A DNA stretch of 64,000 nucleotides from IMG/VR virus record IMGVR_UViG_3300021467_000006, positions 32,321 through 96,320 of that record. The stretch is one strand, 5' to 3'. The first letter of the stretch is position 1. Every line of letters starts with the position of its first letter. The DNA is from a virus. Positions 4,220 through 63,774 of the stretch are shown piece after piece. The position numbers and the translations under genes are program-made. Under the pieces are notes generated by a model. It searched no databases. It was given only the letters and a program-made list of their open reading frames with translations, and was not told the DNA's origin.

Positions 4220-6068
4220 TATAGATTTAGACCATCAAACAATAAGGCAAATAATAGGTATAAATGAAGATGAAGGCGGTTCTAATGGTAGTGGAAAGAG
4301 TAATATTTTACAGGCTTTTTGTTGGTGTTTATATGGAGAAACCTTTCCAAAATTACAGGCAGATGCAGTATTAAATGATAAATTAAAACGTGATTGTGAA
4401 GTATCTGTAGAATTCATAAGAAATAATAAGCATTATAAAGTAATAAGATATAGAAATCATAAAGAATACTCCAATAAGCTAAGAATTTTTGAGGATAATG
4501 TTGATATATCTTTTCATAAAGTCAATCAGGATTTCCTCAATAGCCTTCTTGGATTAAATTTCAAGTTGTTTCATTTCTGCAATATCTTTCAAATAGAAAG
4601 AGATTCCCTTTTTAAGATGACTGAATCGAAAAGGAAGATGTTCTTCGAGGAATTTATACAGGATATAAAATTCTTCAGGGTATTTTGTTTCGATAAGACC
4701 AAGGAATATATAAAAGAAAAAGAAGATAAATTGCAGGAATTAAATACTGATCTACAGAAAATAGATACTACTTTATTTATGTTAGATGATTCTCTAAAGC
4801 ATAAAGAAGCTAAATTAAATACATTAAAAAAAGGGCTAAAAAACGATTATGATAAATTGAATGAACAGGAAAAGAAGCTAAAGAATAAATTAGAAACTAT
4901 TTCTGAAGAAATGAATAAACTAAAGAAACTTATAAATAATGATAGAATTTCCAAATTGATGAATGATCTAACATTTTTGAAATCTGAAATACAGGAAGCT
5001 ACCAAAAATAAAATGGAGTTGGAATTCAAAATAAAAAGATATGAAGATGAATTGGATATACTGCAGAAGAATTTAGATTCCATAAGTAAAGATTTGCTCA
5101 GATATTCCAAAGGAATTTGCCCTTTCTGTTTTACCGATTTAAAGAAGTATAAATCCAAGAAACTGCAAAAGCATATAAATAAGTTAGAAAAACAACAAAA
5201 AGAATTTAAAAACAAGATATCCGAAAGTATAAATAATGCTACTGAAACACAAAAAGAATATGAAAAAACATTGAAAGAAATATCTTCTGATGAAGAACTG
5301 GCAGAAAAAATAGAGAAAGAAATAGAAGCAATAAACGCAGAAAATATAAATGCTAGGATGAAATATGATGATTATAACTATATGAAAGTCAAAATAGAAT
5401 CCGAAATAGATTTAATAGCTGATAAGAAGGAATTACTTTTAGCAAAGAAAAAAGAAATAAAAAATCTGAGGGATGAAATAATCGAACTGGAAGGCAAAAT
5501 AAACAAAATTAAAAATAATGAAAAAGAAATCAATTCAACTGTAAAAACAATAAAAAGCGATCTAGAGCATTTAAATATATTAAAACAGCTATTCAGAGTA
5601 TCCTTACCAAATAAACTTATATCTTCTTTTGTGGATATGTTTGAGTATTATATGAATAAATTTATCAATATGATGGAATTTCAAACTTTTAATATAGTAA
5701 TGGAACCAGAAAAGAACACTGAAGGAGAAATAACCAAGATACCGATATATGTTATCAGGTATGATGGCATACCTAAGAATTTTAATGAGCTTTCAGGCGG
5801 AGAGAGGCAAAGATTAATACTTGCAGAAATACTTGCAATAAAACAAATAGTAGAAGAGTTGGTTGATGTATCATACAATATATTATGGCTAGATGAGATC
5901 TTGGACATTTCCCTGGATACCGCTGGATCTACAAAAATAAAAGATTTATTAATCAAAATACGAGAAAAGCAGGGGTATTCAATAGAATTAATCTCTCATT
6001 CTCAGGATTTAATCTTTGAAAACAAATTAATAATTAGAAAAAGAGATGGTTGGAGCACAATAAGCTAA
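4161..6068 (+). CDS. SbcC/Rad50/gp46-like ATPase of the recombination nuclease
   Basis: SMC-like ABC ATPase of 635 aa. Walker A is GGSNGSGKS (about residues 39-47), followed by long heptad-rich coiled coils (about 170-520). A CPFC zinc hook sits at about 320-323 at the coil tip. The ABC signature is LSGGERQRL (about 543-551), Walker B is ILWLDEILD (about 574) and the switch is SHSQD. This is the partner of the SbcD/gp47-like protein: ATP-driven DNA end resection. The start overlaps the previous gene by 59 bases. All key motifs are intact. Confidence 0.93.
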   Translation: MNLKFIRLKARNFRSLKNIDIDLDHQTIRQIIGINEDEGGSNGSGKSNILQAFCWCLYGETFPKLQADAVLNDKLKRDCEVSVEFIRNNKHYKVIRYRNHKEYSNKLRIFEDNVDISFHKVNQDFLNSLLGLNFKLFHFCNIFQIERDSLFKMTESKRKMFFEEFIQDIKFFRVFCFDKTKEYIKEKEDKLQELNTDLQKIDTTLFMLDDSLKHKEAKLNTLKKGLKNDYDKLNEQEKKLKNKLETISEEMNKLKKLINNDRISKLMNDLTFLKSEIQEATKNKMELEFKIKRYEDELDILQKNLDSISKDLLRYSKGICPFCFTDLKKYKSKKLQKHINKLEKQQKEFKNKISESINNATETQKEYEKTLKEISSDEELAEKIEKEIEAINAENINARMKYDDYNYMKVKIESEIDLIADKKELLLAKKKEIKNLRDEIIELEGKINKIKNNEKEINSTVKTIKSDLEHLNILKQLFRVSLPNKLISSFVDMFEYYMNKFINMMEFQTFNIVMEPEKNTEGEITKIPIYVIRYDGIPKNFNELSGGERQRLILAEILAIKQIVEELVDVSYNILWLDEILDISLDTAGSTKIKDLLIKIREKQGYSIELISHSQDLIFENKLIIRKRDGWSTIS

Positions 6069-6076
6069 TTTTATGC

Positions 6077-6105
6077 TTGACAAAACTTTAAATCCGTAGT
6101 ATTAT
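6077..6105 (+). promoter_or_regulatory. Sigma70-type promoter
   Basis: TTGACA at 6077-6082, a 17-base spacer and TATTAT at 6100-6105, followed 40 bases later by the first gene of a new cluster (6149). Consensus -35 and ideal spacing make this a convincing promoter recognised by host RNA polymerase. Confidence 0.7.
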
Positions 6106-6148
6106 TTGAGCCAACATTAAGAGATATAAAACAAAAAAGGAGTTAATT

Positions 6149-6394
6149 ATGGTTTTTCAACAGTTTTTCTTATTAGGAATTATATTCTTTTTAATCATAA
6201 TTTTAATACCCTTCCATAAGAAAAACAAATTTCCGCTAATAAATTTAGATACTGAACCACAAATAGATTGGGCAACATATATTCAATTACTAAGAAGAAA
6301 AGAAAGGGAGGATAAAAATGTTATTGAAAGGAAAAGCATGTTTTCGAGGATTAGGGAAAAACTTGAGAGAAGAAATCAAAAAGATCCAGCCTGA
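6149..6394 (+). CDS. Small single-pass membrane protein
   Basis: 81 aa. Residues about 5-23 are a strongly hydrophobic helix followed by a basic stretch (HKKNK), predicting a membrane anchor with a charged cytoplasmic tail rich in Arg, Lys and Glu. A ribosome site (AAAAGGAG) precedes the ATG, and this is the first gene after the promoter at 6077-6105. The last 77 bases overlap the next gene. No family recognised. Confidence 0.65.
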   Translation: MVFQQFFLLGIIFFLIIILIPFHKKNKFPLINLDTEPQIDWATYIQLLRRKEREDKNVIERKSMFSRIREKLERRNQKDPA

Positions 6395-6704
6395 TTCAAT
6401 AAAATGCCAAATAAATTATGATGGAAGATATGTAGTATTTGTCATTTATAAAGATAACAAGTCTTACGTTGGAACCGCAATTTGCAGCGTTTTGGATGTT
6501 TTTGATGAATATGAGGGTAAAAACAAAGCTGCTGGAAGAGCAGTAAAAGCATATAAAAAAGGCGAAAGCTCTGAAAAGGTTAGAAGGGATTTTTATGATT
6601 TCCCTAATGGCTGGACTGTAAGACAGGTTATAAATGTTATCAGCCATCCTTTCAGCCATAAATCTTTGGTATTAGATAAAGAAGAAGTGTATATAGGATA
6701 CTAA
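6318..6704 (+). CDS. Hypothetical protein, paralogue of the next gene
   Basis: 128 aa, with a strong ribosome site (GGGAGG) 7 bases upstream. Residues about 30-115 align with the neighbour at 6708-7097: both share the patterns IYKD, AICSxLD, NKAxGRAxxAY and a W-T-x-x-Q near the end. The two look like a tandem duplication. Function unknown; the size suggests an early host-takeover type protein, but nothing in the sequence proves it. Confidence 0.7.
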   Translation: MLLKGKACFRGLGKNLREEIKKIQPDSIKCQINYDGRYVVFVIYKDNKSYVGTAICSVLDVFDEYEGKNKAAGRAVKAYKKGESSEKVRRDFYDFPNGWTVRQVINVISHPFSHKSLVLDKEEVYIGY

Positions 6705-6707
6705 ATT

Positions 6708-7097
6708 ATGTTTATTAAAATCCGAAATAAGTATTTTAAATATATAAATAAGAAGCTAAAGAAAAAATTAAAAGAGATAAATCCAGATCATGTGAATATT
6801 GGAGTTAATGGGAACATAACTACATGTGAAATATATAAAGATGGAGGCGTAGCAATAGGTTTAGCTATATGTAGTACTTTAGACATCTTTGATATGAGAA
6901 TAGGTGTTAATAAGGCTGTAGGGAGGGCTATCAGAGCTTATGTTACTAAACACCACAGTGGTAGAATAAGAAAGAGCTATGATGCCTTCCCTAAGACTTG
7001 GACGTTAGAACAGGCAAGAAACGTATTAAAGGTAGATTCTTTTTTCAAATCAAGATTTTTCAACTATATCCCAAAGGGAAGAATACCTCCCGCATAA
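6708..7097 (+). CDS. Hypothetical protein, paralogue of the previous gene
   Basis: 129 aa, starting 3 bases after the previous stop. It shares a basic N-terminus and the core (IYKDGG, LAICSTLDIFD, NKAVGRAIRAY, FPKTWTLEQ) with the protein from 6318-6704. The duplicated pair differ at both ends. Function not recognised. Confidence 0.68.
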   Translation: MFIKIRNKYFKYINKKLKKKLKEINPDHVNIGVNGNITTCEIYKDGGVAIGLAICSTLDIFDMRIGVNKAVGRAIRAYVTKHHSGRIRKSYDAFPKTWTLEQARNVLKVDSFFKSRFFNYIPKGRIPPA

Positions 7098-7108: not shown

Positions 7109-7423
7109 ATGAACTCAAAAGAATTTCATATGAGAAAGGGCAGATTTTTTATATCTACCGATCTCCTCAATGATAATAGATCTCTAAAAATTATGATTAG
7201 GGCTTTCATTTGGTTACAGTTCATACCAATTGATGTAAGATGGGATTTCATACATCATAGATTTGAATATACAGGCTATTCACCTAGATTTGAACCAATC
7301 GAGGAGGGCAGCATTATGCCTGTTTATGTATTAAAAACTAATATAATCAAAAACAAATTAAAATTTAATCTCAAAAAAATAGGTATTATTGATTTTTCTG
7401 TTGACATGAGTTTAAGTTCATAG
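7109..7423 (+). CDS. Hypothetical protein, 104 aa
   Basis: The frame is open further upstream, but ATG 7109 is chosen because it follows an AAAGGG ribosome site and avoids a long overlap with the previous gene. It has a basic N-terminus, a hydrophobic centre (IMIRAFIWLQF) and no recognised domain. The end of the gene contains the TTGACA of the promoter for the downstream RNA array. Confidence 0.55.
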   Translation: MNSKEFHMRKGRFFISTDLLNDNRSLKIMIRAFIWLQFIPIDVRWDFIHHRFEYTGYSPRFEPIEEGSIMPVYVLKTNIIKNKLKFNLKKIGIIDFSVDMSLSS

Positions 7424-7429
7424 TATATT
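7401..7429 (+). promoter_or_regulatory. Strong sigma70-type promoter for the small-RNA array
   Basis: Consensus TTGACA at 7401-7406, exactly 17 bases, then TATATT at 7424-7429; a second TATAAT overlaps at 7429-7434. The predicted start is near 7436, just before the first structured RNA at 7445. This architecture supports high expression of the RNAs. Confidence 0.8.
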
Positions 7430-7444
7430 ATAATTCAAGTTGAT

Positions 7445-7537
7445 GGGTAGGCAAGTTCTTAACTGCCTTGGTAAAAATTTATTTGTTACATTTTTTCAGC
7501 CAATCCTAAACCTCCTGGCAGAGCCACTTGCCTACTC
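7445..7537 (+). ncRNA. Y-RNA-like structured RNA 1
   Basis: A perfect 10-bp closing stem (7447-7456 with 7526-7535, extendable to 12 bp with a G-U pair) leads into an asymmetric internal loop (7457-7462 against 7522-7525). A second stem follows (CTGCC 7463-7467 with GGCAG 7517-7521), capped by a large pyrimidine-rich loop. A long terminal helix with an internal loop and a pyrimidine-rich apical region is the general plan of Y RNAs, which bind Ro60; a Ro60-like gene follows. The class is inferred from layout and context, not from a database match. Confidence 0.6.
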
Positions 7538-7545
7538 AAATATCA

Positions 7546-7595
7546 AGGTTGGTTACAGCAAACAAAATGCCATGCGGAGGCTCTAACACCAACCT
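7546..7595 (+). ncRNA. Small structured RNA 2 (Ro60-associated family)
   Basis: 8-bp closing stem (7546-7553 with 7588-7595) followed by the family motif TACAGCAA at 7554-7561. A possible 3-bp D-arm-like hairpin GCA-N7-TGC follows. The 3' side ends in CCTG, as in units 3, 5 and 6. At 50 bases it is the shortest unit. Confidence 0.5.
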
Positions 7596-7620
7596 GTTTT
7601 AAAAAATTATTAACAATTAA

Positions 7621-7680
7621 GGCTGACTGCAGCAAATATAATCAATGGTTTTCAGAGGTTCGATCCCTCAAAAGTCAGCC
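7621..7680 (+). ncRNA. tRNA-like structured RNA 3
   Basis: 8-bp acceptor-like stem (GGCTGACT 7621-7628 with 7673-7680). The family motif TGCAGCAA sits at 7628-7635. A T-arm mimic has stem GAGG/CCTC (7655-7658, 7666-7669) and the canonical T-loop TTCGATC. The interior is too short for D and anticodon arms, so this is a tRNA mimic rather than a tRNA. Bacterial YrlA Y RNAs are known to contain such a tRNA-like module. Confidence 0.6.
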
Positions 7681-7691
7681 TGTAAAAAGTT

Positions 7692-7758
7692 AGCGGGAAC
7701 TGGATGGCAGATGTTTTTCTACCCGAAAAATAGGATGGTTCGATTCCATCTTCCCGCT
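7692..7758 (+). ncRNA. tRNA-like structured RNA 4
   Basis: Eight-bp acceptor-like stem (7692-7699 with 7751-7758). A perfect 5-bp T-arm (GATGG/CCATC, loop TTCGATT, 7734-7750) abuts the acceptor exactly as in tRNA. An anticodon-like hairpin is T5/A5 with loop CTACCCG (7714-7730). The D-arm is reduced to a 3-bp CTG/CAG hairpin. The anticodon loop has a pyrimidine after the would-be ACC anticodon and no encoded CCA, so a decoding tRNA is unlikely. Confidence 0.6.
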
Positions 7759-7768
7759 CTTAAAAACA

Positions 7769-7830
7769 AGGGAGGTTACAGCAAGTTCTATGCAACTTAG
7801 CCTCATAAGCTAACCAGAAAATGCCTCCCT
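7769..7830 (+). ncRNA. tRNA-like structured RNA 5 with CAT anticodon-arm mimic
   Basis: Closing stem AGGGAGG (7769-7775) with 7824-7830. Family motif TACAGCAA at 7777-7784. D-arm-like GCA-N7-TGC at 7781-7793. A perfect 5-bp anticodon-arm-like hairpin TTAGC/GCTAA (7797-7801, 7809-7813) has the 7-base loop CTCATAA, identical in form to a CAT (Met/Ile2) anticodon loop. No T-arm can be drawn. It ends CCCTG like its siblings. Confidence 0.58.
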
Positions 7831-7852
7831 GTTCTTATGAAAATAAAGGCCA

Positions 7853-7918
7853 AGGCTGGGTACAGCAAACTTACGCTTATATAGCATCGGACTTTCGAAC
7901 TGATCTATAACCCAGCCT
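7853..7918 (+). ncRNA. Structured RNA 6 with bulged helix
   Basis: 9-bp closing stem (7853-7861 with 7910-7918), then the family motif TACAGCAA at 7861-7868 and a small AGC/GCT arm. A 10-bp hairpin (7880-7884 and 7886-7890 with 7900-7909) carries a single bulged C at 7885 and stacks directly on the closing stem. A bulged-C helix is a feature of Ro60-binding Y RNA stems. The Ro60-like gene starts 36 bases downstream. Confidence 0.58.
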
Positions 7919-7954
7919 GTTTATTAACCTTTTTAACAAATAGGAGGTCTCTCC

Positions 7955-9406
7955 ATGTTTTCCAAAACCCATGAAGGTGGAACTCAGTATCCCTTCTCTT
8001 TAGATCATCATTTAGAATTCTTCTCTAAAGCAGGCTCCCTTTTTAAGAAAAGAGAATCTTTTTATGGATCTGAAGAATCAGCTCTTTCTCTTTTCCAGAA
8101 AATGTGGGTAGTAGATGAAGAGTTATCTATGAAACTGCTCTTTTGGCTGAGAGATTGCAGAGGTGGAGCTGGAAATAGATCCGGTTTTAGAGAATGTATC
8201 AATTGGTTAGCTACCTATGATCCTAGCCTGCCTTTTGATTTTCCAAATTACAAATGGGTAAAAGCCAACTTACATCTAATCCCAAAGTATGGAAGATGGG
8301 ATGACTTGAAGGCTTTATTTGGAACTACTTTGGAAGAGAAAGCTGCAAAATTCTGGGCTGAAGCTTTAAAGAAAAGAGACATTCTTGCAGCTAAATGGGC
8401 TAAAAGGCATTATAAGCCTCTTCAAAAAGCATTAAATACCAACGAAGCTAGATTAAGGAAGATGCTTTCTAGAATTAGAAAGAATCATATAGTTGAGTAC
8501 AAATTGTGCTCTAATCTCTGGAAAGAGATTGAATATCCTAAAGTACCTTCTGTAGCAATGGCAAGATATACAAATGCTTTTGCCAGGCATGATGAAGAAG
8601 GCTTCAGGAAATTCAAAGAAGACTTAAGAAAAGGAAAGGTAGAAATCAAAGCTTCTGTACTTTTCCCCCACGATTGCGTCAGAACTGTAAGAAGTGGAGA
8701 CGCAGAAATAGCAGATGCTCAGTTTGAAGCTCTTCCTAATTATCTGGATGGTAATAAAGAGCGTATTATCGTAATTTCTGATACTTCAGGATCTATGAGT
8801 ATTCGAGTATCTGGTTCTGTCAGGGCTGTAGATATCTCTATTGGAATGGCATTGTATTGCTCTGCCAAGATTCCTAAAGATAATCCTTTCCATAAGAAAT
8901 TCATTGCATTCTGCTCTGAAGGTAGTTTTAAGGATTGGAATGGAATGAAATTTTCAGAAGCAGTAACAAGTGGAGAGATATTTGATGGTGCCATAGGTGG
9001 AACTAGAATTGATAAAGCTCTTGATTTGATACTCAAAACAGCAAGATTCTTCAATCTCACTAATGAGCAAATGCCTACTTGCTTGCTTATTGTTTCGGAT
9101 ATGCAATTTCATGAAGGTTTATCACAATGGAATTGGGGCAAAAAAGACTTCACTCCCGAATTAGTACAAACAGAAGTCAATAAAGCACTAAAGAGATGGG
9201 ATAAAGCTGGGTATAAAAGACCTAAGATAATCTACTGGAATACCGCTGGTTATGCTGGGTCTCCAGAAACAGTCAGAGCTGAAAATACAGCTTTGGTATC
9301 TGGTTTTAGTCCATCTATACTTAAAGCTATTTTCTCTGCTTCAGAATTCACACCTTATACAATTATGTTAGAAGCTATCAAGAAGTATAAAATCAATAAA
9401 CCTTAA
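7955..9406 (+). CDS. Ro60-like RNA-binding protein (TROVE/DUF2828-type repeats plus von Willebrand A)
   Basis: 483 aa. The N-terminal two thirds are helical and resemble the Ro60/TROVE-related DUF2828 family (LLFWLRDCRGGAGNR, IPKYGRWDDL, a VPSVAMARY segment, LFPHDCVR). The C-terminal part is a von Willebrand A domain with MIDAS motif DTSGS (residues 276-280), a GGTRID loop and IVSDMQF. Ro60 binds Y RNAs and misfolded RNA and, in bacteria, can tether Y RNA to exoribonuclease. The ribosome site is TAGGAGG. It is the only protein gene in a unit with six small structured RNAs. Orthology to Ro60 versus a wider DUF2828 role remains open. Confidence 0.82.
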   Translation: MFSKTHEGGTQYPFSLDHHLEFFSKAGSLFKKRESFYGSEESALSLFQKMWVVDEELSMKLLFWLRDCRGGAGNRSGFRECINWLATYDPSLPFDFPNYKWVKANLHLIPKYGRWDDLKALFGTTLEEKAAKFWAEALKKRDILAAKWAKRHYKPLQKALNTNEARLRKMLSRIRKNHIVEYKLCSNLWKEIEYPKVPSVAMARYTNAFARHDEEGFRKFKEDLRKGKVEIKASVLFPHDCVRTVRSGDAEIADAQFEALPNYLDGNKERIIVISDTSGSMSIRVSGSVRAVDISIGMALYCSAKIPKDNPFHKKFIAFCSEGSFKDWNGMKFSEAVTSGEIFDGAIGGTRIDKALDLILKTARFFNLTNEQMPTCLLIVSDMQFHEGLSQWNWGKKDFTPELVQTEVNKALKRWDKAGYKRPKIIYWNTAGYAGSPETVRAENTALVSGFSPSILKAIFSASEFTPYTIMLEAIKKYKINKP

Positions 9407-17694: not shown

Positions 17695-17841
17695 GCGCTG
17701 GACTGGGGTGGTGTGGCCTCCCAGGTCTGGCTTTACAGGCCATTCGCTGTTGCATATCCCCCAACAGCGAATCCCCAGCCTATCCCCTGCCTTTCGGCAC
17801 CAGGACGGGGTGCCCTCTTAAAGGGCAAATCTGGGCAGCGC
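17695..17841. ncRNA. GC-rich structured RNA candidate of unknown class
   Basis: A GC-rich island in very AT-rich surroundings. A long-range stem GCGCTG (17695-17700) with CAGCGC (17836-17841) closes a domain. Inside it are an 11-bp perfect hairpin (17742-17752 with 17762-17772), TGCC/GGCA (17788-17799) and TGCCCT/AGGGCA (17811-17827). Strand is undecided because base pairing is symmetric. No known RNA family is recognised. A 110-codon plus frame crosses it but looks spurious. Confidence 0.45.
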
Positions 17842-20144: not shown

Positions 20145-20672
20145 TTATGATTTTTTTATGTTATACAATTTACCATTCCACCATTTAGGAATATCACCAG
20201 GCCAAGCTGCATAGTTATTCATGATTTTACGTTCTAAGCCATTTATTATCCATACATAATCTACAAATTCAGAGCATATGAATTTTTCGGGATTTCTTTC
20301 TGGATGGGTAAAAGCACTTTTTAATAATGCTGAATAATCATAACCTTTATTATGAGAAAGCAATAGGAAGGCTGTTTTAAAAATAGTCAATGTATTCCAT
20401 CTGTTTAATCCTTCTGGAACAAATAAGTCTACCTGTTCAGAAGGTTCATTTTTCAACATTTCTTCTAAATCATTAAATTCCAAACCATGTTCAAATGCTT
20501 CTATTAAAAATACTTTGTCCTTCAATAAATCATATTTATCAAACCTAATAATCAGAGAAGCATGGCTGTATTCAGTCCATTTCTTTATTACTTCTGAAAT
20601 AAGAAAGGAATTCTTCCATAAAATACAGCTTCCGGTTACCATTTTAGGTTTTAATGATTCAAAGTTATTCAT
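20145..20672 (-). CDS. NlpC/P60-like (YiiX-type) permuted papain-fold protein
   Basis: 175 aa. The order GSCILW ... YSHASL (His 37) ... LIEA ... YDYSALLKSAF ... FICSEFVDYVW (Cys 133) ... PGDIPKWW matches the circularly permuted YiiX/NlpC-P60 superfamily, with His before Cys. Enzymes of this fold cleave peptide or ester bonds in cell wall or lipids. It may help cell entry or lysis; specificity unknown. Confidence 0.75.
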   Translation of the reverse strand: MNNFESLKPKMVTGSCILWKNSFLISEVIKKWTEYSHASLIIRFDKYDLLKDKVFLIEAFEHGLEFNDLEEMLKNEPSEQVDLFVPEGLNRWNTLTIFKTAFLLLSHNKGYDYSALLKSAFTHPERNPEKFICSEFVDYVWIINGLERKIMNNYAAWPGDIPKWWNGKLYNIKKS

Positions 20673-44400: not shown

Positions 44401-47244
44401 GGACGTAGAAGCTCTAATACCAGCATCAGCCATCGTACCCAAAATAGCAGCAGTTTCTTCCAGAGTTACATTTATTTGGGGGGCAATACCTGTAATATAA
44501 TTGAAAGAAGTATTCAATCTATCCACAGTTAATCGAGTGCTGTTTATTGCAGAAGTAAAAATATTTGCAACATCAGCAGCATTGGAAGTTTCAAGATTCC
44601 ATGCCTGCATAGCAGATAACATTAAATTAACGGTGTCTGAAAGTTCAGATCCGGTTGCAACAGCAAGCTGGGAAGTAGAAGTTATAAGTGCAATTGATTC
44701 TTGAGCTGTATAACCTGCCTGACCTATTTTTATCAAAGCATCTGCTATATCAGTAGCAGCAAGAGCATATCTCATTGAGAGGTCAACCACCGTATCCGTT
44801 GCCAAATCTACAGCTTCTGTAGTAGCTAGGGTAATAGTCTGGAACTTTTTCATCTTGTCTTCAAGTTCCACTATTGTTTTAGTTACATCGCTAAAAATTC
44901 TCCTTAACTCCCATAAAGTCCTATAAAGCAGGAATACCCCAACCAACCTAAAATTAAAAAACCCAGATAGAGCAGAACCTGCTCCAATTATAGTTCCCCT
45001 TGTTTTTTCAGCTTCAGTCTCAGTCTGTCTTAAGATACTTCTTACTACCCCTAAAGATCTCTCTAATTTTTGTGTATTATTCTTCCATTCCCTAGTAAGA
45101 GTTCCATTTGCAGCAACAAACTTGGTAGTTGTCTTCAATATATTAAGAATCTGTTGCTCTCTAGCTCTAAGTTCTGCAGTAGTTCTTAATTCTTCTATAC
45201 CAGTGGTTAATTGCTCTATTTTCTCTTTCGTTATGGAATCCAAAATCTTTTTAGATTCTATTCTGGATCTTACTTCCTTTTCTACACCTCTAACGGTTCT
45301 ATCGGAAATATCTGATAATTGCTTTGTAGCTGCTAAGGTTTCATCTACAACCTGTTTTCTTTCCTTTATTAGCCTTAAAACTCTCTCGGCATTTTTAGTT
45401 TCTTCTTCAGATCCTCCAGAAACCTTTAGATTTTTCAAATATTGTTCTTGAGCTACAAGCAAATTATTTAATTTTTCTTGTTCGGCCACTAATAAAGTAT
45501 AAGCAGATTTTTCAGTAGATAATTGTGTGTTTATCCTACCTAATAAAACCTGCTGTTCTGTAGTAAGATTAGCTTGCTGTAATAATTCATCTCTAAGTCT
45601 TACTTGAGATTGTTCATTCAATAACCCAAGCTCATACTGAAGCTGCAAAGATCTTATAGATTGCTCTCTTGCAGTAGTTATAGCTTGTTCTATTTTTTCT
45701 CTATTTATACCAAAAGCCTCAATTAACCTATTAGCTTCTAAGTCTTTAGCATAAGAATCCGCTATTAATTTCCTCAACTTTGAAATATTTGATTCTATAT
45801 TATATTGGCTTTCTAATTGAACATTTATTTCTGCAAGAGTAGAAACTGCTTTTTTTATGCTTTTATCTAAATCTATACCTAAAGAAGCTCTGGATTTCTG
45901 AATAAGAAGATCATAATAATCCACAACCTGAGAAATAGAATATACTCTTTTATTTTCAAATTTTATTAATTCTGCTTCTATTTCAAGTTCTTTCTTCCTC
46001 TGCCTAAGCGTGGCAACTGTTTCAGCAGTTATAGTTTTCCCTAAAGAATACGCTTCTTTTAAGAGAATATTTACCAAATCTAATTCTGATCTAATTTTCT
46101 CTATAGAACCTTTAGATTTTAAAGATTCAACATAAAAAGAAGCCCAATCTTTTGTAGATAAATTAAGGGTATTTAACACATCTTTTAATGAAAGATTATA
46201 TTTCTGAGCATAAAGAGAAGTTTGCTTTAATAAGTTTATGGCTTCCTGTTCTGAAGCTAAACCTGCTCTGACCACATTAGCTCTGACTTGAAGAGCTTGT
46301 AATTCAATATCTCTATATTGGACAATCTGCTTTATGTTTTTAACTTCAGTAGCGCTTAGGTCATAACCAGCCTTAGCTAATGAAATTATTTGATTGCGTA
46401 CACTTTCTGCCATCCTTGGAACATATTGAAATTCCGATTTAATGAGTCCTAAAGTCTTCGATAGTTCCGCTCTGGTTCTTCCTAATTTCTCTAATATCCC
46501 TGAATATGCACCTCCTAATTGTTGTACAGGAGTTGCCACTATATTTCTGGAAGCATAAAATTGTTCTGTTTTCTTATTGAGAAGATCAAATTCCCGAATG
46601 AGTTGTTGTAACCCAACGAGAGCAGTTTTAGAACCAAAATTAAGTTTCCGTAGATTTTCTACAGCTTTTAAAAATGCCGTTTTTGATTTATCATCCCCCA
46701 ATTTAAGGGCTTCAATCATCCTATCTATAGATGGAATAACTCTACCACGAAGTTCTTTATCTAACTGAGGAGATAATTTCACATTTGATAAAGTAGCTTT
46801 CACACTTTCCATTCTAGAAGCTACTTCACCAAGAGATTCTTGTATTTTAATATTTTCTTCTACACCTACTTTTCCATATTTATGATAAAGAGAAGTAGAG
46901 CTATCTATTAATTTGTTAAGATTCCCAAAAGCAACTCCAACTTCTGCATAATGGGAATGTACATCTTCAATATTTTTTATTAGAGTTTTAATACCAGGAA
47001 GAAATTTTTTACCGCTTATACCTAAATCCAGACCAGAACTTATATCTTGAGCTAGAGTTCTAAACTGTTTCCGAAAAGCACTTATATATTTATAAGTATT
47101 ACTGAAGGGATCACCTTTTATTGCCCCTTCAATATTAATTGATTTCAATGAGGATTCTAAAGCCTGTGCTGCTTTTGATGCTTTATTAGAAGCTCTATCC
47201 TCAAAATCAAGCGCTAAAGTTGCTATTAATTCAGCTACCGTCAT
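41467..47244 (-). CDS. Tape measure protein
   Basis: 1925 aa, the longest gene here. Mostly long amphipathic helices, with a phage minor tail (TP901/PhageMin_Tail-like) core around residues 765-1080 that contains a hydrophobic segment (FRLVGVFLLYRTLW) and repeated NIFTSAIN/GTMADAGIRAS motifs. The C-terminal part has a Gly-rich GGWIPGYGGGDVVP segment typical of tape measure ends. It sets tail length and helps DNA ejection. The start overlaps the chaperone frame by 4 bases. Confidence 0.9.
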   Translation of the reverse strand: MTVAELIATLALDFEDRASNKASKAAQALESSLKSINIEGAIKGDPFSNTYKYISAFRKQFRTLAQDISSGLDLGISGKKFLPGIKTLIKNIEDVHSHYAEVGVAFGNLNKLIDSSTSLYHKYGKVGVEENIKIQESLGEVASRMESVKATLSNVKLSPQLDKELRGRVIPSIDRMIEALKLGDDKSKTAFLKAVENLRKLNFGSKTALVGLQQLIREFDLLNKKTEQFYASRNIVATPVQQLGGAYSGILEKLGRTRAELSKTLGLIKSEFQYVPRMAESVRNQIISLAKAGYDLSATEVKNIKQIVQYRDIELQALQVRANVVRAGLASEQEAINLLKQTSLYAQKYNLSLKDVLNTLNLSTKDWASFYVESLKSKGSIEKIRSELDLVNILLKEAYSLGKTITAETVATLRQRKKELEIEAELIKFENKRVYSISQVVDYYDLLIQKSRASLGIDLDKSIKKAVSTLAEINVQLESQYNIESNISKLRKLIADSYAKDLEANRLIEAFGINREKIEQAITTAREQSIRSLQLQYELGLLNEQSQVRLRDELLQQANLTTEQQVLLGRINTQLSTEKSAYTLLVAEQEKLNNLLVAQEQYLKNLKVSGGSEEETKNAERVLRLIKERKQVVDETLAATKQLSDISDRTVRGVEKEVRSRIESKKILDSITKEKIEQLTTGIEELRTTAELRAREQQILNILKTTTKFVAANGTLTREWKNNTQKLERSLGVVRSILRQTETEAEKTRGTIIGAGSALSGFFNFRLVGVFLLYRTLWELRRIFSDVTKTIVELEDKMKKFQTITLATTEAVDLATDTVVDLSMRYALAATDIADALIKIGQAGYTAQESIALITSTSQLAVATGSELSDTVNLMLSAMQAWNLETSNAADVANIFTSAINSTRLTVDRLNTSFNYITGIAPQINVTLEETAAILGTMADAGIRASTSGTSMRAMFAELLRPSNRLIDTLSNLGLTIEDVDPQLHTITQILNTLKKAGFSAADAFRAFGRRGASGIAVLVSNAEKVAQLSTSFNNYARAASLAAIASESLQARLTIFWNSIKAVFVDLVPTITHFIDALTGLRKMEITPEGAIKFTKTVGEIVLAAESAKKRIDELSLSMSNFNDTVAEIRGLERAGLFIQAVTKAYKAGLVPLEEYNKLMKEYNAEIVTGADTTNTLRKAQELLNDSIKRNIEIERVRRIVEFSDALEKQAEANRKLRDTYEEQNKELIQILKSYKNYRDELATPFTEADVVLGLPDVGDLNKAISNIQKLLGSPLSSEWLKSLRDQNVELTGITKDMSKQLYDFIKVVELAGPEFAKKLYSSNKTINDYTKSLKNFLNILKYEGGSIKDLTFIDTKNIKELAKYPKLFVELSTQFVSTSEDIDALKVAFSTLIDEGILPATEGGAVQRFVSLLEDEDIQIKSLVTSINVLQKQFSDMDTTLSRTTVNFKNTMKPLQDVQTLTLQYSHTLQKLNLIREQVAWGIVDYTKKLNELTNVQKIQINQQKALQAKQTYLVDIGSITARMQLMEQSYKRQLELAKGNAETINKINAWRAEQETRLYSEMSKAATNYKNTIDQLVKDETSALQKLYQQLNDINVQLQQNEVSLELSLKSFDNAVREKLRKMEGTSRSTFDRLKREARSISSLLSEARLYADEGKGKVYLREAEQRLNALKSSFLSTTKLSEAQVRSLSHRIKALMKDLSDVKDSVLEDQKTTLEAQINMMEKSLNSLVTEMRSAMDAVKKSLEKQGQLEIKDNIDTEIVPKFEALIKKIVESEPKLVIKDNLDSVITKLKDVSKLLDDINRKAKISIAVSKGEGKSTGGWIPGYGGGDVVPTWLEPGEFVVRKEIVKNLGLGFFKSINEGLVFNASFPKMQAGGVVQESKPKEIVNVNLNLGGTQFPLFGDKEIVDMFVERLEKERLMSI

Positions 47245-54771: not shown

Positions 54772-56361
54772 TTATTCTTGTTTATTCATAGGTCTACCTT
54801 CTCCAGTATCCTTCTTTATATCTGGAGAACCTTCTTCTTTTTCATCATAAGTTCTATCAGAAGGAGATTTATATTCTGATGATCCAAAAACACTTTGGCC
54901 GAAAGTCATTTTTACATTCCCAGCTCTCACATTTTCAACTATTTCTGATGCTTCTTTATTCTCTATCTCATCTATCACCTCCTCTTTTACACTATCAGGT
55001 GCTGATTTTAATAATTTCAAAGCAACCTCTTTAGCTAAATATTTTGTCAATTTATCTGAAATACTCTTGGAAATCACATCAAAAGTATACTTCAGATAAT
55101 CTACAAAATTTAAAACATCGAAAGATTTAGGATAAACTACTTGATATATAGATTCATCATTTACAGGCTTACCTGTCATAATTTCATAATACATTTTCAT
55201 TATTTCCATTTCAGCTTTCTCTAAATTCGAGGACTTAGAATTGAGATTAGCTTCTATGGAATAAAATTGCTGTTGTTTAGCCCTACCTGAAGAAGCAGAT
55301 ACATCAACAGCAGTACCTGCAAGACCTGCCATAATATAAATCTGCTTGATATGAGAAAGCACCATTTCCCATATAACTTCTATTTGTGAAGTATCAGGAG
55401 AAATAAATCTAGGGGGATGTCCAGCATTAGCAGGAAAGGTAAAAATAGCAGCAGTTCCAACTTTTACCAACGGGTCTTCACCTGTATGCTTCTTGGCCTC
55501 TGCTTGCTCTGCTAAAGAACCATCATCTGGACAGGTCAATTGCGAAAATGTTTGTCTTTCTATCATTTCATCAATATTTGAACACCAGTTAAATATAGCT
55601 CTATTTACATATGCTATATCTTTAATGGTAGAAAGACTTAATCCTTCATATGATTCCCCCATATTTTTCACTAAAACAACAGGTACAAAACCAAAAGGAT
55701 TATCAATTTTACTACCTACCTGTTCTCCCGTCTCCTTTTCATATTTAACCCAATAATCTCTAGTTATTAGATTCCTAATAGTAACAATTTCCCTATCTAT
55801 TGTAGGGTCTGAATCTTCATAAATATCTTCCTCTATCAATATCCAATCAAAATTGCCATGTGTGTCTACAGAAAAATCCACAACTTCTGAAGGTACATGC
55901 ATTGTAAGATAAGGATAGAGGTTGTAGTTTTTAACTATATTAAGGGGAACTTTGCTGTCTTCTGAAGTAGGGAACAATGATAAATCACGAAAGTTGAATA
56001 ATACATATACAAAACCACAAGCCCCAGAATAATTCGATACTTTTCTCATAAAAGTATCTATATCATCACCAGAACCTGTTACATTTTTTAGAAATGGAGC
56101 AAAGATTTCATTGGAAGGTCTTATGATTTCTTTAGAAAATATGAAGTTTGTGTAACTTTCTATTACAGCAGAACAATAATTTAAGTAATAAGCTCTTTCT
56201 TTTCTATTTTCAAAATCCTCATCTAATTCCAAACGGTGAGTAAATAAATTATCACCATCTATGTAATCGCTTCCTCCTTCATATGCCTCTAAAAAGAAAG
56301 ACCACTCTTCATTGTGGTCTTTATATAAAGGATGTTCTCTATCAGTTATAGCCACACTCAT
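54772..56361 (-). CDS. Portal protein
   Basis: 529 aa between large terminase and scaffold. Portal-like features are the ADP-like WSFFLEAYEGG start, NRAIFNWCSNIDEMIERQTF helix, and AKQQQFYSIEANLNSKSSNLEKAE stem helices. Forms the dodecameric DNA entry ring. Overlaps the terminase stop by 4 bases. Confidence 0.85.
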   Translation of the reverse strand: MSVAITDREHPLYKDHNEEWSFFLEAYEGGSDYIDGDNLFTHRLELDEDFENRKERAYYLNYCSAVIESYTNFIFSKEIIRPSNEIFAPFLKNVTGSGDDIDTFMRKVSNYSGACGFVYVLFNFRDLSLFPTSEDSKVPLNIVKNYNLYPYLTMHVPSEVVDFSVDTHGNFDWILIEEDIYEDSDPTIDREIVTIRNLITRDYWVKYEKETGEQVGSKIDNPFGFVPVVLVKNMGESYEGLSLSTIKDIAYVNRAIFNWCSNIDEMIERQTFSQLTCPDDGSLAEQAEAKKHTGEDPLVKVGTAAIFTFPANAGHPPRFISPDTSQIEVIWEMVLSHIKQIYIMAGLAGTAVDVSASSGRAKQQQFYSIEANLNSKSSNLEKAEMEIMKMYYEIMTGKPVNDESIYQVVYPKSFDVLNFVDYLKYTFDVISKSISDKLTKYLAKEVALKLLKSAPDSVKEEVIDEIENKEASEIVENVRAGNVKMTFGQSVFGSSEYKSPSDRTYDEKEEGSPDIKKDTGEGRPMNKQE

Positions 56362-57911
56362 CCCCCGTATGTGAGAAGCTGAAATTTTTTCTTATTTATT
56401 AATTCCATTGCACCAGCCAAAGCATCTGGGCCATCATCATTATTCACAATTCCATATAGATGTAGCTGTGTATATAATGTCAAATGATTCTTATTAAAAC
56501 GAATTGTACCATCTTTTATAAGAGGTTCTAACTTAGAGATACGAGCTTTTTTAGGTAAATTATTCTGAACAGCAATGATTGGAACATAGATTCCTTCTTC
56601 TCTTAATTCCCTTTTAAAATCATTAGTAATCAATGCCTGAAAGCCATTTGATTCAATTCCTACATATCTTATTTTATCCAGGTATTTAATAGAATATCTC
56701 TTTAATTCGCTCTTCTGATATGAAGGTGGTTTCTTCTCTACATCTGCATGTAATACAAAAACATATCCAGAATCTATATGCCTCATTAATACAATAAGAG
56801 CATAGTAATCAGATTTCTTATTTTTATTAACTGTGGGATCTAAGTAAATATATATCTCACTGTCATCAATAAGGGCTTTTATGTCTTCTTCTTCATAAAA
56901 ACTAAAGATACTCTCAGGAAAGAGAAGTGTTGATGGGTCAAATGGTTCGTTCTGTTTCTCTGAATAAAAGGAGGCTGTTCCTTCTCCAATGAGTTCTACC
57001 ATTAAATCATAGTAAGAAGATCCTTCAGGCCACATGAGGGAAACGCCTGACAACATTACCTCTTCATGTTTCTTATAGAAGATATAGGCATTTTTCTCCC
57101 TTCTCTTATCGAATCTATTTTGATATATAGCCTTCCATTTATCCCATAAGTCTTGATTCTTAGCAAAAGATAGGACAGCTTTAAACTTCTTACCATGAAA
57201 AGCAGAGAATTCTGGAGTAGTCAAAAGTTTGTTTAATAAACTAAAAGGATGTAATATAGTACCAACAACAAATATATCTACAGGTCGGTTGGGGCCTCCT
57301 GTTTTCAATACATCCTTAGAAAACCAATCAGATATATGTTCTCTATATGTTTCAGATATAATGGCATTTCTATTTTCCAAATCATCAGCTATAACCAACC
57401 CAACACGGTGTTGTTTAAATCTCCTGCCTCTAACTTTACCCATAGACCCCAATGCACGGATCATGATTTCATTTTTTGTTATTATGAATTCATCTCTCCA
57501 TTTAGTTCCTTTTCCGAATACTTCTGGATAAAAGTATTGAATCATTTCATTTGTTTCTAGCTCTCTCTTTATATCTGATAAGAAATCACTTGCTTGGGAA
57601 AATACGTCTGAAAGAATAACTATGTAATGGTAGAGATTTTTATTTCTTCTTGCAGACTCGCATATAATCCATAGAGGCCATGCAAGAGTAGTAACAGTAG
57701 ATTTACCAAAACCACGAGGGGCAGCTATAGCTTCCCTCGCATTTTTACCTATATTTTCCCTGAAGTTATTAAATAAATAATAATGAAGTGGAGAAAAGGG
57801 AATTGTGAAATAATGAGGCAGGATAGTAGCAGCAAAAGCATCTATTCTTGAAGAAAATACTTCTCTTAGGATTTCTTTTTGTGATAATTTAGGTTTTCCT
57901 GATTTAAACAT
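56358..57911 (-). CDS. Large terminase subunit
   Basis: 517 aa. ATPase Walker A APRGFGKST (about 65-73) and Walker B VGLVIADDLEN (about 175-185). The C-terminal nuclease domain has acidic residues in YIYLDPTVNKN (about 355), VGIESNG (about 420) and DDGPDALAGA near the end. Powers DNA packaging and cuts concatemers. A RuvC-like nuclease lies next to it. Confidence 0.93.
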   Translation of the reverse strand: MFKSGKPKLSQKEILREVFSSRIDAFAATILPHYFTIPFSPLHYYLFNNFRENIGKNAREAIAAPRGFGKSTVTTLAWPLWIICESARRNKNLYHYIVILSDVFSQASDFLSDIKRELETNEMIQYFYPEVFGKGTKWRDEFIITKNEIMIRALGSMGKVRGRRFKQHRVGLVIADDLENRNAIISETYREHISDWFSKDVLKTGGPNRPVDIFVVGTILHPFSLLNKLLTTPEFSAFHGKKFKAVLSFAKNQDLWDKWKAIYQNRFDKRREKNAYIFYKKHEEVMLSGVSLMWPEGSSYYDLMVELIGEGTASFYSEKQNEPFDPSTLLFPESIFSFYEEEDIKALIDDSEIYIYLDPTVNKNKKSDYYALIVLMRHIDSGYVFVLHADVEKKPPSYQKSELKRYSIKYLDKIRYVGIESNGFQALITNDFKRELREEGIYVPIIAVQNNLPKKARISKLEPLIKDGTIRFNKNHLTLYTQLHLYGIVNNDDGPDALAGAMELINKKKFQLLTYGG

Positions 57912-58405
57912 GTAAATCCATATAACCCAATAAGGACTGACTCTGCAATCCCATCATGTGGTTTTTTTGATCTTTTGGATTTTAATAATGATAAATCAGG
58001 AAAAAGGCAACTTACTTTTTCTATAGCATCTATTTTTTGCTTCTTTGTACCTTTCAACATAACCTTTTTCCATTCTTGCGGTCTTACTCTAATAAATGGA
58101 AGATTAAGACCTAAAAGAATACCATGAATTATTCCAGCATTATACATATACCTACCTGAAGAAGCTATACCTTGTTTGGGCATTGTTTGTGTTTTTTCTA
58201 TAACTGTCATAGTTGGTAGATATGTTTTAAAAATCATAATCAATTTATGATAATCCAACTTCCTTCTATTCTTCTCTTTGATAATAGGCATAACAGAAGA
58301 ATAAATTACCTTATGCTTATTTTTTGGTGTTTCAGCTATTACTGAAATACCCCCATCAAAACCAGGATCTATGCCACAAACAATAATACGTCTTTTAATC
58401 GTCAT
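57866..58405 (-). CDS. RuvC-like Holliday junction resolvase
   Basis: 179 aa; ATG 58405 follows GAAGAGG and is preferred over ATG 58426. RNase-H fold motifs are CGIDPGFDGG (first Asp), VIEKTQ (Glu) and KPHDGIAESVLIGLYG (last acidic pair). It probably resolves branched DNA before packaging. Overlaps the terminase start by 46 bases. Confidence 0.85.
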   Translation of the reverse strand: MTIKRRIIVCGIDPGFDGGISVIAETPKNKHKVIYSSVMPIIKEKNRRKLDYHKLIMIFKTYLPTMTVIEKTQTMPKQGIASSGRYMYNAGIIHGILLGLNLPFIRVRPQEWKKVMLKGTKKQKIDAIEKVSCLFPDLSLLKSKRSKKPHDGIAESVLIGLYGFTCLNQENLNYHKKKS

Positions 58406-58658
58406 AAATAGCCTCTTCACATTCATCTAGAAATTTATTGATCTGATGTTGTAACCTTGCAGTTACACTTAAAGCCTTATAGGTAGGGTCTTTAGAAAAC
58501 CAACAATATTCTACATCGCCTTCAGCATCTACAATACCCAAGACAAATATCTTCACTTCATCTTTTCTGAGTCTATTTAAAAGCCTTTTTAACATCTTAT
58601 TAGCTGGAAAGACATCGGTGAAATAAATAAGGTTGGATTTTATCTTTTCCTCAGGCAT
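58395..58658 (-). CDS. Hypothetical protein, 87 aa
   Basis: Small alpha/beta protein (VKIFVLGIVDAEGDVEYC). Precedes the RuvC-like gene with an 11-base overlap. No family recognised. Confidence 0.55.
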   Translation of the reverse strand: MPEEKIKSNLIYFTDVFPANKMLKRLLNRLRKDEVKIFVLGIVDAEGDVEYCWFSKDPTYKALSVTARLQHQINKFLDECEEAIYDD

Positions 58659-58675
58659 TTTTTCTCCAAATTATA

Positions 58676-58704
58676 TTGACTAAAGATTAAGAGTATGCTA
58701 TATT
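58676..58704 (+). promoter_or_regulatory. Sigma70-type promoter, antisense inside the late operon
   Basis: TTGACT at 58676-58681, 17-base spacer, TATATT at 58699-58704. Same -10 and spacing as the RNA-array promoter. Start expected near 58711, leading into a small RNA and terminator. Confidence 0.7.
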
Positions 58705-58710
58705 TATAAT

Positions 58711-58779
58711 GCGTTAAGCCAACGGCCATACACATGGTCACAGGACAAAGGCTGTCTATTTTAGACAGCCTTTATTTTT
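58711..58779 (+). ncRNA. Small noncoding RNA, about 70 bases
   Basis: Bounded by the promoter at 58676-58704 and the hairpin/T-run at 58747-58779. It has two hairpins: GGCCAT/ATGGTC with loop ACAC (about 58724-58739) and the 12-bp terminator stem. No start codon with a ribosome site. It lies between two leftward genes and is antisense to the late transcript. Confidence 0.65.
58747..58779 (+). terminator. Rho-independent terminator of the small RNA
   Basis: Perfect 12-bp stem (58747-58758 with 58762-58773), 3-base loop, then ATTTTT on the plus strand. The minus strand lacks a good T-run, so it mainly serves the plus-strand RNA. Confidence 0.85.
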
Positions 58780-59241
58780 GTGTTCATACCATAGATTATA
58801 TATCCTCCTGTAAGTTTTAATAAACCAACTTCCAAATTCATAACATATTATTTCTTCAGCTATATCTTTATGATTATGATAATTTATTTCATCCTGATTC
58901 TCTATCTCTTCAAAAGAAGGATTCTCCAAGGTTCTTATCCTATTAAACATTGCATGAAGCAATTCATGCGCAACTACTTCTTCATTAAAACATTCTATAG
59001 TTATATGTATTTCTCCAAGTTTAGGTCTTATTATTTTTTCGTCAGGTTTATCGTTGTAAACCATAATTATTTCCCATTCATGATTCACAACAGCGGAAGC
59101 ATTTTCAGAATTCAAAGAATTCTCCCTCAAACTCTTTAAATCTTTCCAAATAAAAACATGATAATAATGTTTTCTATCTAAAGTCTTTAATTTGAAACAA
59201 TCTAATAAATTAGTTTTATCCTTACGTCTTTTTACTGGCAT
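58756..59241 (-). CDS. Putative zinc metallopeptidase-like protein (HExxH)
   Basis: 161 aa. VAHELLHAMFN gives HExxH, followed by acidic and His residues (EEIENQ, HNHKDIAEEI), and Cys/Tyr late. HExxH plus a downstream Glu suggests a zinc peptidase such as the SprT or ImmA-like group. Substrate unknown. Confidence 0.62.
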   Translation of the reverse strand: MPVKRRKDKTNLLDCFKLKTLDRKHYYHVFIWKDLKSLRENSLNSENASAVVNHEWEIIMVYNDKPDEKIIRPKLGEIHITIECFNEEVVAHELLHAMFNRIRTLENPSFEEIENQDEINYHNHKDIAEEIICYEFGSWFIKTYRRIYNLWYEHKNKGCLK

Positions 59242-62215: not shown

Positions 62216-62244
62216 TTGACCTCTTATAAACCACGCATTATAAT
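62216..62244 (+). promoter_or_regulatory. Divergent promoter for the cysteine-rich gene
   Basis: TTGACC (62216-62221), 17-base spacer, TATAAT (62239-62244), 33 bases before ATG 62278. Divergent to the late promoter. Confidence 0.75.
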
Positions 62245-62277: not shown

Positions 62278-63774
62278 ATGCCAACAAGCACCGAAGATCC
62301 TTATACAATAGAATTAAGCGCTGATGAGGCACTTCTGATGCACGATGTTATAGAAGGAACTATAACTGCAATAGATAGGGATGCTAAAACTGTAGATGTA
62401 ACCCTCGATGAGCCTTATTATCCACGAAACCAAAATATTCATTATGGAAAGCTGGAAAAATATGATACTTATGAACATTATGAATCAGATCCTATAACTG
62501 AAATTTCCGGCGCAAAAATCATATATAACTGCCAATCTTCAAATTTAGATCCTACTTCCGCTTTCAATGTTAATGATAAGGTACTAATATATGCTGTAAA
62601 TGATGAATATTATTGCGTGGGATTTCCTGATGAAATAAGAAGATGCGGGCAGATACTATATATACAGTTGGATACAAAATGCCTTATCTGGGATATAGAA
62701 GGGGAGCAGCCTGTATCAATAGATGGAGTAACATGGCCTGCAGACATAAATAATCAAGCTGTAAAGGATTATATAAACAATCTCCAACCAGCTCCTGTAG
62801 CCGGAATGATAGAATATACACAATATGCCCCTCCTTGGGATTATGCCACACATAAGGTATATCTTTTCGCTCATGAAGCCTCTGGAGGGGAACCTTGGTA
62901 TATAAAACCTGATACCCCTGAATGCTGGAGCCCTGAAATAGATGGGTTCAGCTTTAGAATAAACTGCAACGAAACATGGAGCGAATCGACCTGCTATGAT
63001 CCAGGCGTTCCATGCCACCATTCTATGACTTCCACAGATTATTTAGCTAGAGAGGTTATACAATACAATTTCTTCAATAAGCACGAGATGCTGATAGATC
63101 TTGCCTATTATATGATGCATTGGAGCAGCACTTATGATGCCGAGGAATATCCCTGCCATACCTGCCAATCCACGGGGAGGGTATCGCTATTTAAAAGAAC
63201 AGGAGCTGGAGATACCTCTCCTGAAGAGTATTCCTCATGGCCTGATGCCGAGGTATCTGCATGTTGCGTGAATATGGTATATGAATCGGATCAATGCACT
63301 TCCCAACCCTGCGAAGACCCTTCCATTTTATATTGCTATGATTCTGAAAAGATACGCTCTATATCCAAATCAGTTGTCAGACCTCTGGATAAGGATTCCA
63401 ACTTCTTTGGTATCTTCTATGAGCCTCCGCAATATTCCTTAACCCACAGCGGATATTGCTCGAATCTTTATTGCTTCATAATAATAGTAGGAAGATTTAT
63501 AACCGGAGATGTTTATGGAGGCATGGGAAATTATATGCATCAATATGGCTATAATGAGTGTATTTATAACGAGGACAATTTCGTCAATAGGGTTCTGGTA
63601 TTAAAAACAGATGCTCCTGAAGAAGGAGATATAACAGATATTGATCCTTATAATTATCAAGAATATTCAACTCTGGTTCCATATATAGAAGATCTGATAG
63701 ACGCAGTAAGGGAAGGGTTATCCCCAACAGATATAACATATCCTCAGCAACTAGCAATAACAATATATACATAA
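62278..63774 (+). CDS. Cysteine-rich protein of unknown function, 498 aa
   Basis: N-terminal about 110 residues look like an OB/SH3-type barrel (VIEGTITAIDRDAKTVDVTL ... NVNDKVLIYAVNDEYYCVGF), as in tail-tip proteins. The rest is aromatic, acidic and Cys-rich (many pairs, for example SACCVN, CPCHTCQS-like) and could be disulfide or zinc stabilised. It has no signal peptide. It is the only protein gene on the plus strand in the right half, with its own promoter and GAGG site. Possibly a virion or surface protein. Confidence 0.62.
   Translation: MPTSTEDPYTIELSADEALLMHDVIEGTITAIDRDAKTVDVTLDEPYYPRNQNIHYGKLEKYDTYEHYESDPITEISGAKIIYNCQSSNLDPTSAFNVNDKVLIYAVNDEYYCVGFPDEIRRCGQILYIQLDTKCLIWDIEGEQPVSIDGVTWPADINNQAVKDYINNLQPAPVAGMIEYTQYAPPWDYATHKVYLFAHEASGGEPWYIKPDTPECWSPEIDGFSFRINCNETWSESTCYDPGVPCHHSMTSTDYLAREVIQYNFFNKHEMLIDLAYYMMHWSSTYDAEEYPCHTCQSTGRVSLFKRTGAGDTSPEEYSSWPDAEVSACCVNMVYESDQCTSQPCEDPSILYCYDSEKIRSISKSVVRPLDKDSNFFGIFYEPPQYSLTHSGYCSNLYCFIIIVGRFITGDVYGGMGNYMHQYGYNECIYNEDNFVNRVLVLKTDAPEEGDITDIDPYNYQEYSTLVPYIEDLIDAVREGLSPTDITYPQQLAITIYT

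What the first reader, a model, noticed from the sequence alone, without database searches (positions are those of the whole stretch)
58676..58779. Promoter-small RNA-terminator module antisense within the late operon
TTGACT-N17-TATATT is followed after about 7 bases by a two-hairpin RNA of about 70 bases and a perfect terminator, all on the strand opposite to the surrounding genes. This is a complete sRNA gene that could regulate late transcripts or host mRNA.
Basis: partly seen in the sequence, partly recalled or inferred. Interest (0 to 1): 0.62.

Follow-up and report, generated by a model that had tools for sequence, protein, structure and literature searches.

The report
Phage antisense small-RNA gene
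A bacterial virus carries, in an optional 377-base insert within its late genes, a tiny self-contained gene that probably makes a 70-base RNA opposite to those late genes; this looks like a new example of a known kind of viral regulatory RNA, but its effect is untested.

Summary
On the + strand lies TTGACT-N17-TATATT (58676-58704) with an extended -10 (TGn). A start near 58711 and a strong intrinsic terminator (58747-58773, 12 pairs, U-rich tail) follow, and all genes around it read on the - strand. It is the only good promoter-to-terminator pair in the 96-kb phage record; shuffles give 0.017 per genome. The terminator is certain as a sequence element, the promoter likely. The first hairpin is weak (p about 0.1 in its context).

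The only close relative found (G001, terminase 95% identical) is collinear here but lacks 58401-58777. The sRNA and a genuine-looking 87-codon gene (ORF87) therefore form one accessory insert. G001 carries two other promoter-RNA-terminator units; one has a look-alike promoter and a faintly similar 5' body (p 0.02-0.04, not conclusive).

Best reading: a phage cis-antisense sRNA of the lambda OOP / P22 sar kind, covering the ORF161-ORF87 junction of the late mRNA. Expression and function are untested. A search for trans targets within the phage gave nothing beyond chance (p 0.15). No homologue was found in Rfam, GenBank phages or IMG/VR. Interest is modest. A structured-RNA array at 7.4-7.95 kb, beside an RNA-binding-protein gene, looks more interesting.

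The parts
58676..58704 (+). sigma-70-type promoter TTGACT-N17-TATATT with extended -10 (TGC before TATATT)
   Evidence: unique promoter-terminator pair
58711..58780 (+). predicted small RNA, about 67-70 nt
   Evidence: start inferred 7 nt after the -10; fold; no transcript data
58724..58739 (+). hairpin 1 GGCCAU-ACAC-AUGGUC
   Evidence: predicted fold; weak, p 0.105 in 36-nt context
58747..58779 (+). intrinsic terminator: 12-pair stem 58747-58773 and U-rich tail
   Evidence: p < 0.001 against shuffles
58401..58777 (.). accessory insert absent from relative G001/L003 (about 14 bp there)
58395..58658 (-). ORF87, coding, within the insert; function unknown
   Evidence: no family match
58756..59241 (-). 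ORF161, late-operon gene whose last 25 nt lie opposite the RNA's terminator
57866..58426 (-). RuvC-like Holliday junction resolvase gene downstream of ORF87
   Evidence: phrog_1770, E 2e-25

Best explanation
A self-contained small-RNA gene: a host-type sigma-70 promoter drives a roughly 70-nt RNA that ends at an intrinsic terminator (sequence shown; transcription inferred). It travels with ORF87 as a 377-bp accessory insert between ORF161 and the RuvC-like gene of the late operon (shown by comparison with G001; whether gained here or lost there is unknown). The most likely mode is cis-antisense control. The RNA is perfectly complementary to the late mRNA from the last 25 nt of ORF161 through about half of the ORF161-ORF87 gap. 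It would pair there early in infection or at low late-transcript levels, expose the duplex to RNase III or disturb the leader of ORF87, and so lower expression of ORF87 and possibly of downstream late genes until late transcription overwhelms it or runs over its promoter (inferred).
For: Unique promoter-terminator pair, 0.017 expected by shuffling. The promoter is TGn-extended, as are both comparable pairs in the relative, although only 3 of 68 good promoter matches in this genome are. No + strand gene lies upstream whose transcript this terminator would obviously end. The insert boundary falls at the end of the terminator on one side and at the RuvC gene start on the other, so promoter, RNA, terminator and ORF87 behave as one unit. 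ORF87 is coding. The layout resembles the published lambda OOP and P22 sar arrangements (PMC12197685, PMC7968456), and P22 sar also lies in a moron of the late region (PMC2629481).
Against: No transcript data. No homologue and no covariation test possible: the RNA is a singleton. The first hairpin is unremarkable. The sRNA does not overlap the ribosome-binding site of ORF87 (about 50 nt away), so direct RBS blocking as in sar does not apply. Host and its sigma factor are unknown.
Confidence: 0.45

Rival explanations
1. A trans-acting sRNA: the same transcript is made, but it acts by short pairing with host mRNAs (or distant phage mRNAs) through its single-stranded 5' end and hairpin-1 loop, and its antisense position is incidental.
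For: Stand-alone promoter-body-terminator layout with a U-rich 3' tail is typical of trans-acting sRNAs; unpaired 5' stretch in the fold. A look-alike unit in G001 has a faintly similar 5' body at a different site, p 0.02-0.04, which a trans function would explain better than a cis one.
Against: Best duplex with 142 phage translation starts is no better than for shuffled RNAs (p 0.15); no conservation; host unknown, so host targets untested.
Confidence: 0.25
2. Antisense promoter and terminator without a functional RNA: the unit works as a roadblock, either the + promoter interfering with late RNA polymerase or the terminator stopping + strand read-through into the operon, and the short RNA is a by-product.
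For: The body has no notable structure beyond the terminator and no conservation. The relative does without it.
Against: No + strand gene upstream needs a terminator here; the promoter sits directly before the terminator, so read-through control alone does not explain it.
Confidence: 0.2
3. Promoter is a chance match; only the hairpin is real and serves the - strand mRNA, as a 3'-end stabiliser or processing site at the end of ORF161.
For: Promoter matches in this AT-rich genome are at chance level taken alone; the - strand RNA folds as stably (-25.6 kcal/mol).
Against: The U-rich tail lies on the + side only; on the - strand the stem is followed by GUCCUGUGACC, so it is no terminator there. 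The pair is rare by chance, and the extended -10 recurs in the relative's units.
Confidence: 0.1

Closest known systems
Lambda OOP RNA (pO, antisense to cII)
   Same: Short phage RNA with its own promoter, antisense to a gene of the opposing operon; acts through RNase III cleavage of the mRNA (PMC12197685).
   Different: No sequence relation was found by Rfam (which may not hold OOP) or by blastn against GenBank phages; the flanking genes are late genes of unknown function rather than cII/O, and no activity is shown.
Phage P22 sar RNA (arc-ant intergenic antisense RNA, in the 'ant moron' of the late region)
   Same: Small antisense RNA in an intergenic region of an opposing operon (PMC7968456), carried by a variable moron among late genes (PMC2629481).
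   Different: sar covers the ant ribosome-binding site; this RNA starts about 50 nt upstream of the ORF87 start. ORF87 shows no relation to any known family.
Lambda aQ (paQ) antisense RNA
   Same: Phage antisense transcript that lowers expression of the opposing gene.
   Different: The aQ promoter is CII-activated (PMC5869508); here the promoter looks like an unaided extended -10 sigma-70 promoter.
Phage morons in general
   Same: Insert present in one phage and absent from a collinear near relative, with its own promoter and terminator (for the sRNA).
   Different: The promoter and terminator serve the RNA and not the protein gene ORF87, which reads with the late operon; base composition does not stand out (GC 0.337 against 0.324 and 0.283 in the flanks).

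Membership tests
Phage cis-antisense sRNA (OOP/sar kind) | Own promoter on the strand opposite to the target operon | tested here: met
   TTGACT-N17-TATATT with TGn, all neighbouring genes on -; sequence level only
Phage cis-antisense sRNA (OOP/sar kind) | Short RNA ended by an intrinsic terminator | tested here: met
   58747-58773 stem with U-rich tail, most stem pairs of any terminator-like site in 50-64 kb
Phage cis-antisense sRNA (OOP/sar kind) | Complementary to a gene or gene junction of the opposing mRNA | tested here: met
   By position: covers the 3' end of ORF161 and about half of the ORF161-ORF87 gap
Phage cis-antisense sRNA (OOP/sar kind) | Transcript exists and changes the level or translation of the target | not testable with these tools
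   No expression data
Phage cis-antisense sRNA (OOP/sar kind) | Sequence homology to a known RNA family (not required for the mode of action) | tested here: not met
   Rfam: nothing near a gathering score; no blastn match of the region in 50,697 phage records
Moron | Absent from a collinear close relative at the same site | tested here: met
   G001 has about 14 bp in place of 377 bp
Moron | Composition differs from the flanks | tested here: not met
   GC 0.337 against 0.324 and 0.283; only the sRNA itself is higher, 0.443. Not filed as a moron for this reason
Moron | Autonomous transcription of the protein gene | tested here: inconclusive
   No good - strand promoter for ORF87; only a 9/12 match at 58786-58758, chance level
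Type I toxin-antitoxin (antisense RNA against the leader of a small hydrophobic toxin) | Small hydrophobic membrane toxin | tested here: not met
   ORF87 is 87 aa, rich in charged residues, predicted alpha/beta at low confidence (mean pLDDT 55.7)

The most novel reading that the evidence does not exclude
This phage group carries interchangeable promoter-sRNA-terminator cassettes. Each phage has its own units at different sites (G000 window 58676-58779; G001 20524-20617 and 45916-45768). The first two have near-identical promoters (TTGACT-N17-TATATTTA) and possibly a shared 5' body (CAA...CCATACA...G.TCAC), which would mean a mobile sRNA family reshuffled among otherwise collinear phages.
Probability: 0.15. 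Interest if true: 0.5.

Novelty: new member of a known kind. Interest (0 to 1): 0.3.

Why it matters
Phage sRNAs are known mostly from a few coliphage and Salmonella phage models. A clean antisense sRNA gene in an optional insert of an uncultivated phage, with comparable units at other sites in its closest relative, would suggest that such RNAs are exchangeable accessory elements rather than fixed parts of one regulatory switch. If the RNA is not expressed, the finding reduces to an accessory terminator.

Tried and rejected
Rfam at gathering and permissive thresholds: only sub-threshold noise (McaS 20 bits against a cut-off of 42). Exact sRNA core in IMG/VR, ORF87 in IMG/VR and GenBank phages, and distant blastn of the region: nothing. 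A covariance model of the single RNA over 0.86 Mb of related loci found only itself, its own inverted terminator and two matches at E above 2. Pattern search for the shared promoter plus CCATACA..TCAC motif gave four hits; the only promoter-terminator unit among them is G001 itself, and the other three show no terminator, at least one (L174) lying inside a long reading frame. Terminase-alignment scans gave no relative between 38% and 95% identity, so no covariation test was possible. Dyad GGCCAT-N4-ATGGTC as a repressor operator: one near-copy elsewhere in the window, not pursued. Trans targets within the phage: p 0.15. A coding reading of the + RNA: only a 28-aa frame (58734-58820) with no ribosome-binding site seen in the sequence and running through the terminator. 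ORF87 structure from a single sequence was too uncertain for a fold search. Type I toxin-antitoxin rejected because ORF87 is not hydrophobic.

Full report
What is there. The window is bases 32321-96320 of a 96,320-base virus record. Genes from about 18 to 62 kb are on the - strand and include terminase (56358-57911), portal (54772-56361) and a RuvC-like resolvase (57866-58426), so this is the late operon of a tailed phage. In the gap between ORF161 (58756-59241) and ORF87 (58395-58658), the + strand reads TTGACT, 17 nt ending in TGC, TATATT (58676-58704), then a predicted start near 58711 and a terminator stem of 12 pairs at 58747-58773 with a U-rich tail.

More than chance. Promoter matches alone mean nothing here (60 found, 63.6 expected). 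A >=10/12 promoter followed within 20-150 nt by a terminator of >=8 pairs occurs once in both strands of the 96-kb record, against 0.017 per shuffled genome. Because the genome has more real terminators than shuffles do, a fairer figure conditions on those 14 terminators: about 0.7 such coincidences expected for any >=10/12 promoter, but about 0.03 for one with the extended -10, which only 3 of 68 sites have (my arithmetic, after the fact). Ranked over all terminator-like sites of both phages, this promoter and the two corresponding ones in the relative share the top score. The fold energy of the 70-mer is extreme (z -5.25), but that is the terminator; the 5' 36 nt are not unusual (p 0.105).

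Relatives. Only one close relative was found in IMG/VR, L003/G001, terminase 95% identical; the next are at 38% or less. G001 is collinear apart from orientation and the start point of the map. At this point its ORF161 homologue overlaps the RuvC homologue directly, with about 14 bp in place of window 58401-58777. The difference removes ORF87 (but for its last codons) and the whole sRNA unit. ORF87 scores as coding as strongly as accepted genes of the phage (+0.22 per codon; other frames negative) but has no relative in PHROGs, Pfam, GenBank phages or IMG/VR. Which phage changed cannot be told without an outgroup.

Similar units elsewhere. The same scan finds two promoter-RNA-terminator units in G001: + strand 20524-20617, also opposite to nearby reading frames, and - strand 45916-45768, in the divergent region between operons. 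The roughly 108-bp shortfall of the G000 alignment at the first and the roughly 840-bp shortfall at the second suggest that G000 lacks both. The first has nearly the same promoter, and its 5' body aligns as CAA...CCATACA...G.TCAC; the RNA-only similarity is p 0.04 by shuffling and 0.018 against genomic 36-mers, and promoter included 0.0003, which is inflated because both were picked for their promoters. I regard common origin as possible, not shown. A pattern scan of IMG/VR recovered only G001 as a promoter-terminator unit.

Mechanism. Shown: the sequence elements, their orientation, perfect complementarity to the late transcript over the ORF161 3' end and about half of the ORF161-ORF87 gap, and the accessory nature of the insert. 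Inferred: transcription by host sigma-70 polymerase, and antisense action on the late mRNA. The closest published parallels are lambda OOP, which directs RNase III to cII mRNA (PMC12197685), and P22 sar, an arc-ant intergenic antisense RNA (PMC7968456) that sits in a moron of the late region (PMC2629481). Unlike sar, this RNA does not cover a ribosome-binding site. A search for trans targets among 142 phage translation starts gave a best duplex no better than shuffled RNAs (p 0.15). Host targets cannot be tested without a host.

Verdict. A probable (about 0.75, my estimate) phage sRNA gene of a known kind, cis-antisense action most likely, with no expression evidence and no conservation. Interest 0.3. 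Seen in passing and probably more interesting: a conserved array of at least five small structured RNAs upstream of a phrog_850 / DUF2828 RNA-binding-protein gene at 7.4-7.95 kb.

Noticed in passing
window 7400-7950 (+), upstream of the phrog_850 / DUF2828-DUF7788 'RNA-binding protein' gene 7955-9406; G001 counterpart in L006 about 2.5-3.6 kb: Tandem array of at least five small structured RNAs behind a strong promoter-like sequence (TTGACA-N17-TATATT near 7401). Four share AAGGnnGGnTACAGCAAA-like 5' ends and complementary CC-rich 3' ends, two elements carry tRNA T-loop-like GGTTCGATCC/GGTTCGATTCC, and one is called as a 67-nt tRNA-Gly. The array is 85% identical in the relative. It may be a Y-RNA or tRNA-mimic set for a Ro60-like protein (Ro60 relation recalled, not tested).
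   Followed up: partly
window 17704-17826 (-); L010:8720-8855 (+): EGFOA RNA (RF02955, 49.8 and 44.7 bits) in both phages, near the junction of the + strand genes and the late - strand operon.
   Followed up: partly
L008 about 5960-6750 (G001 45750-46550): About 840 extra bases in G001 between divergent operons, with a promoter-RNA-double-terminator unit (45916 to 45768, -) and other stable hairpins; the 223-aa frame over it looks spurious; no Rfam match.
   Followed up: partly
G001 20400-20620 (L007 about 500-720); G000 counterpart L005 about 1780-2060 (-): Two similar terminators (GCCCTCAA...TTGAGGGC) flank the promoter-RNA unit in G001 where G000 has one; the unit may have arisen by recombination between the terminator stems.
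   Followed up: partly
window 19-2127 (+): RecA-like protein apparently interrupted by an intein (read from the translation only).
   Followed up: no
window 62216-62244 (+): The best promoter match in 50-64 kb (TTGACC-N17-TATAAT, 11/12) directly upstream of the + strand 498-aa gene 62278-63774, divergent from the late operon.
   Followed up: no
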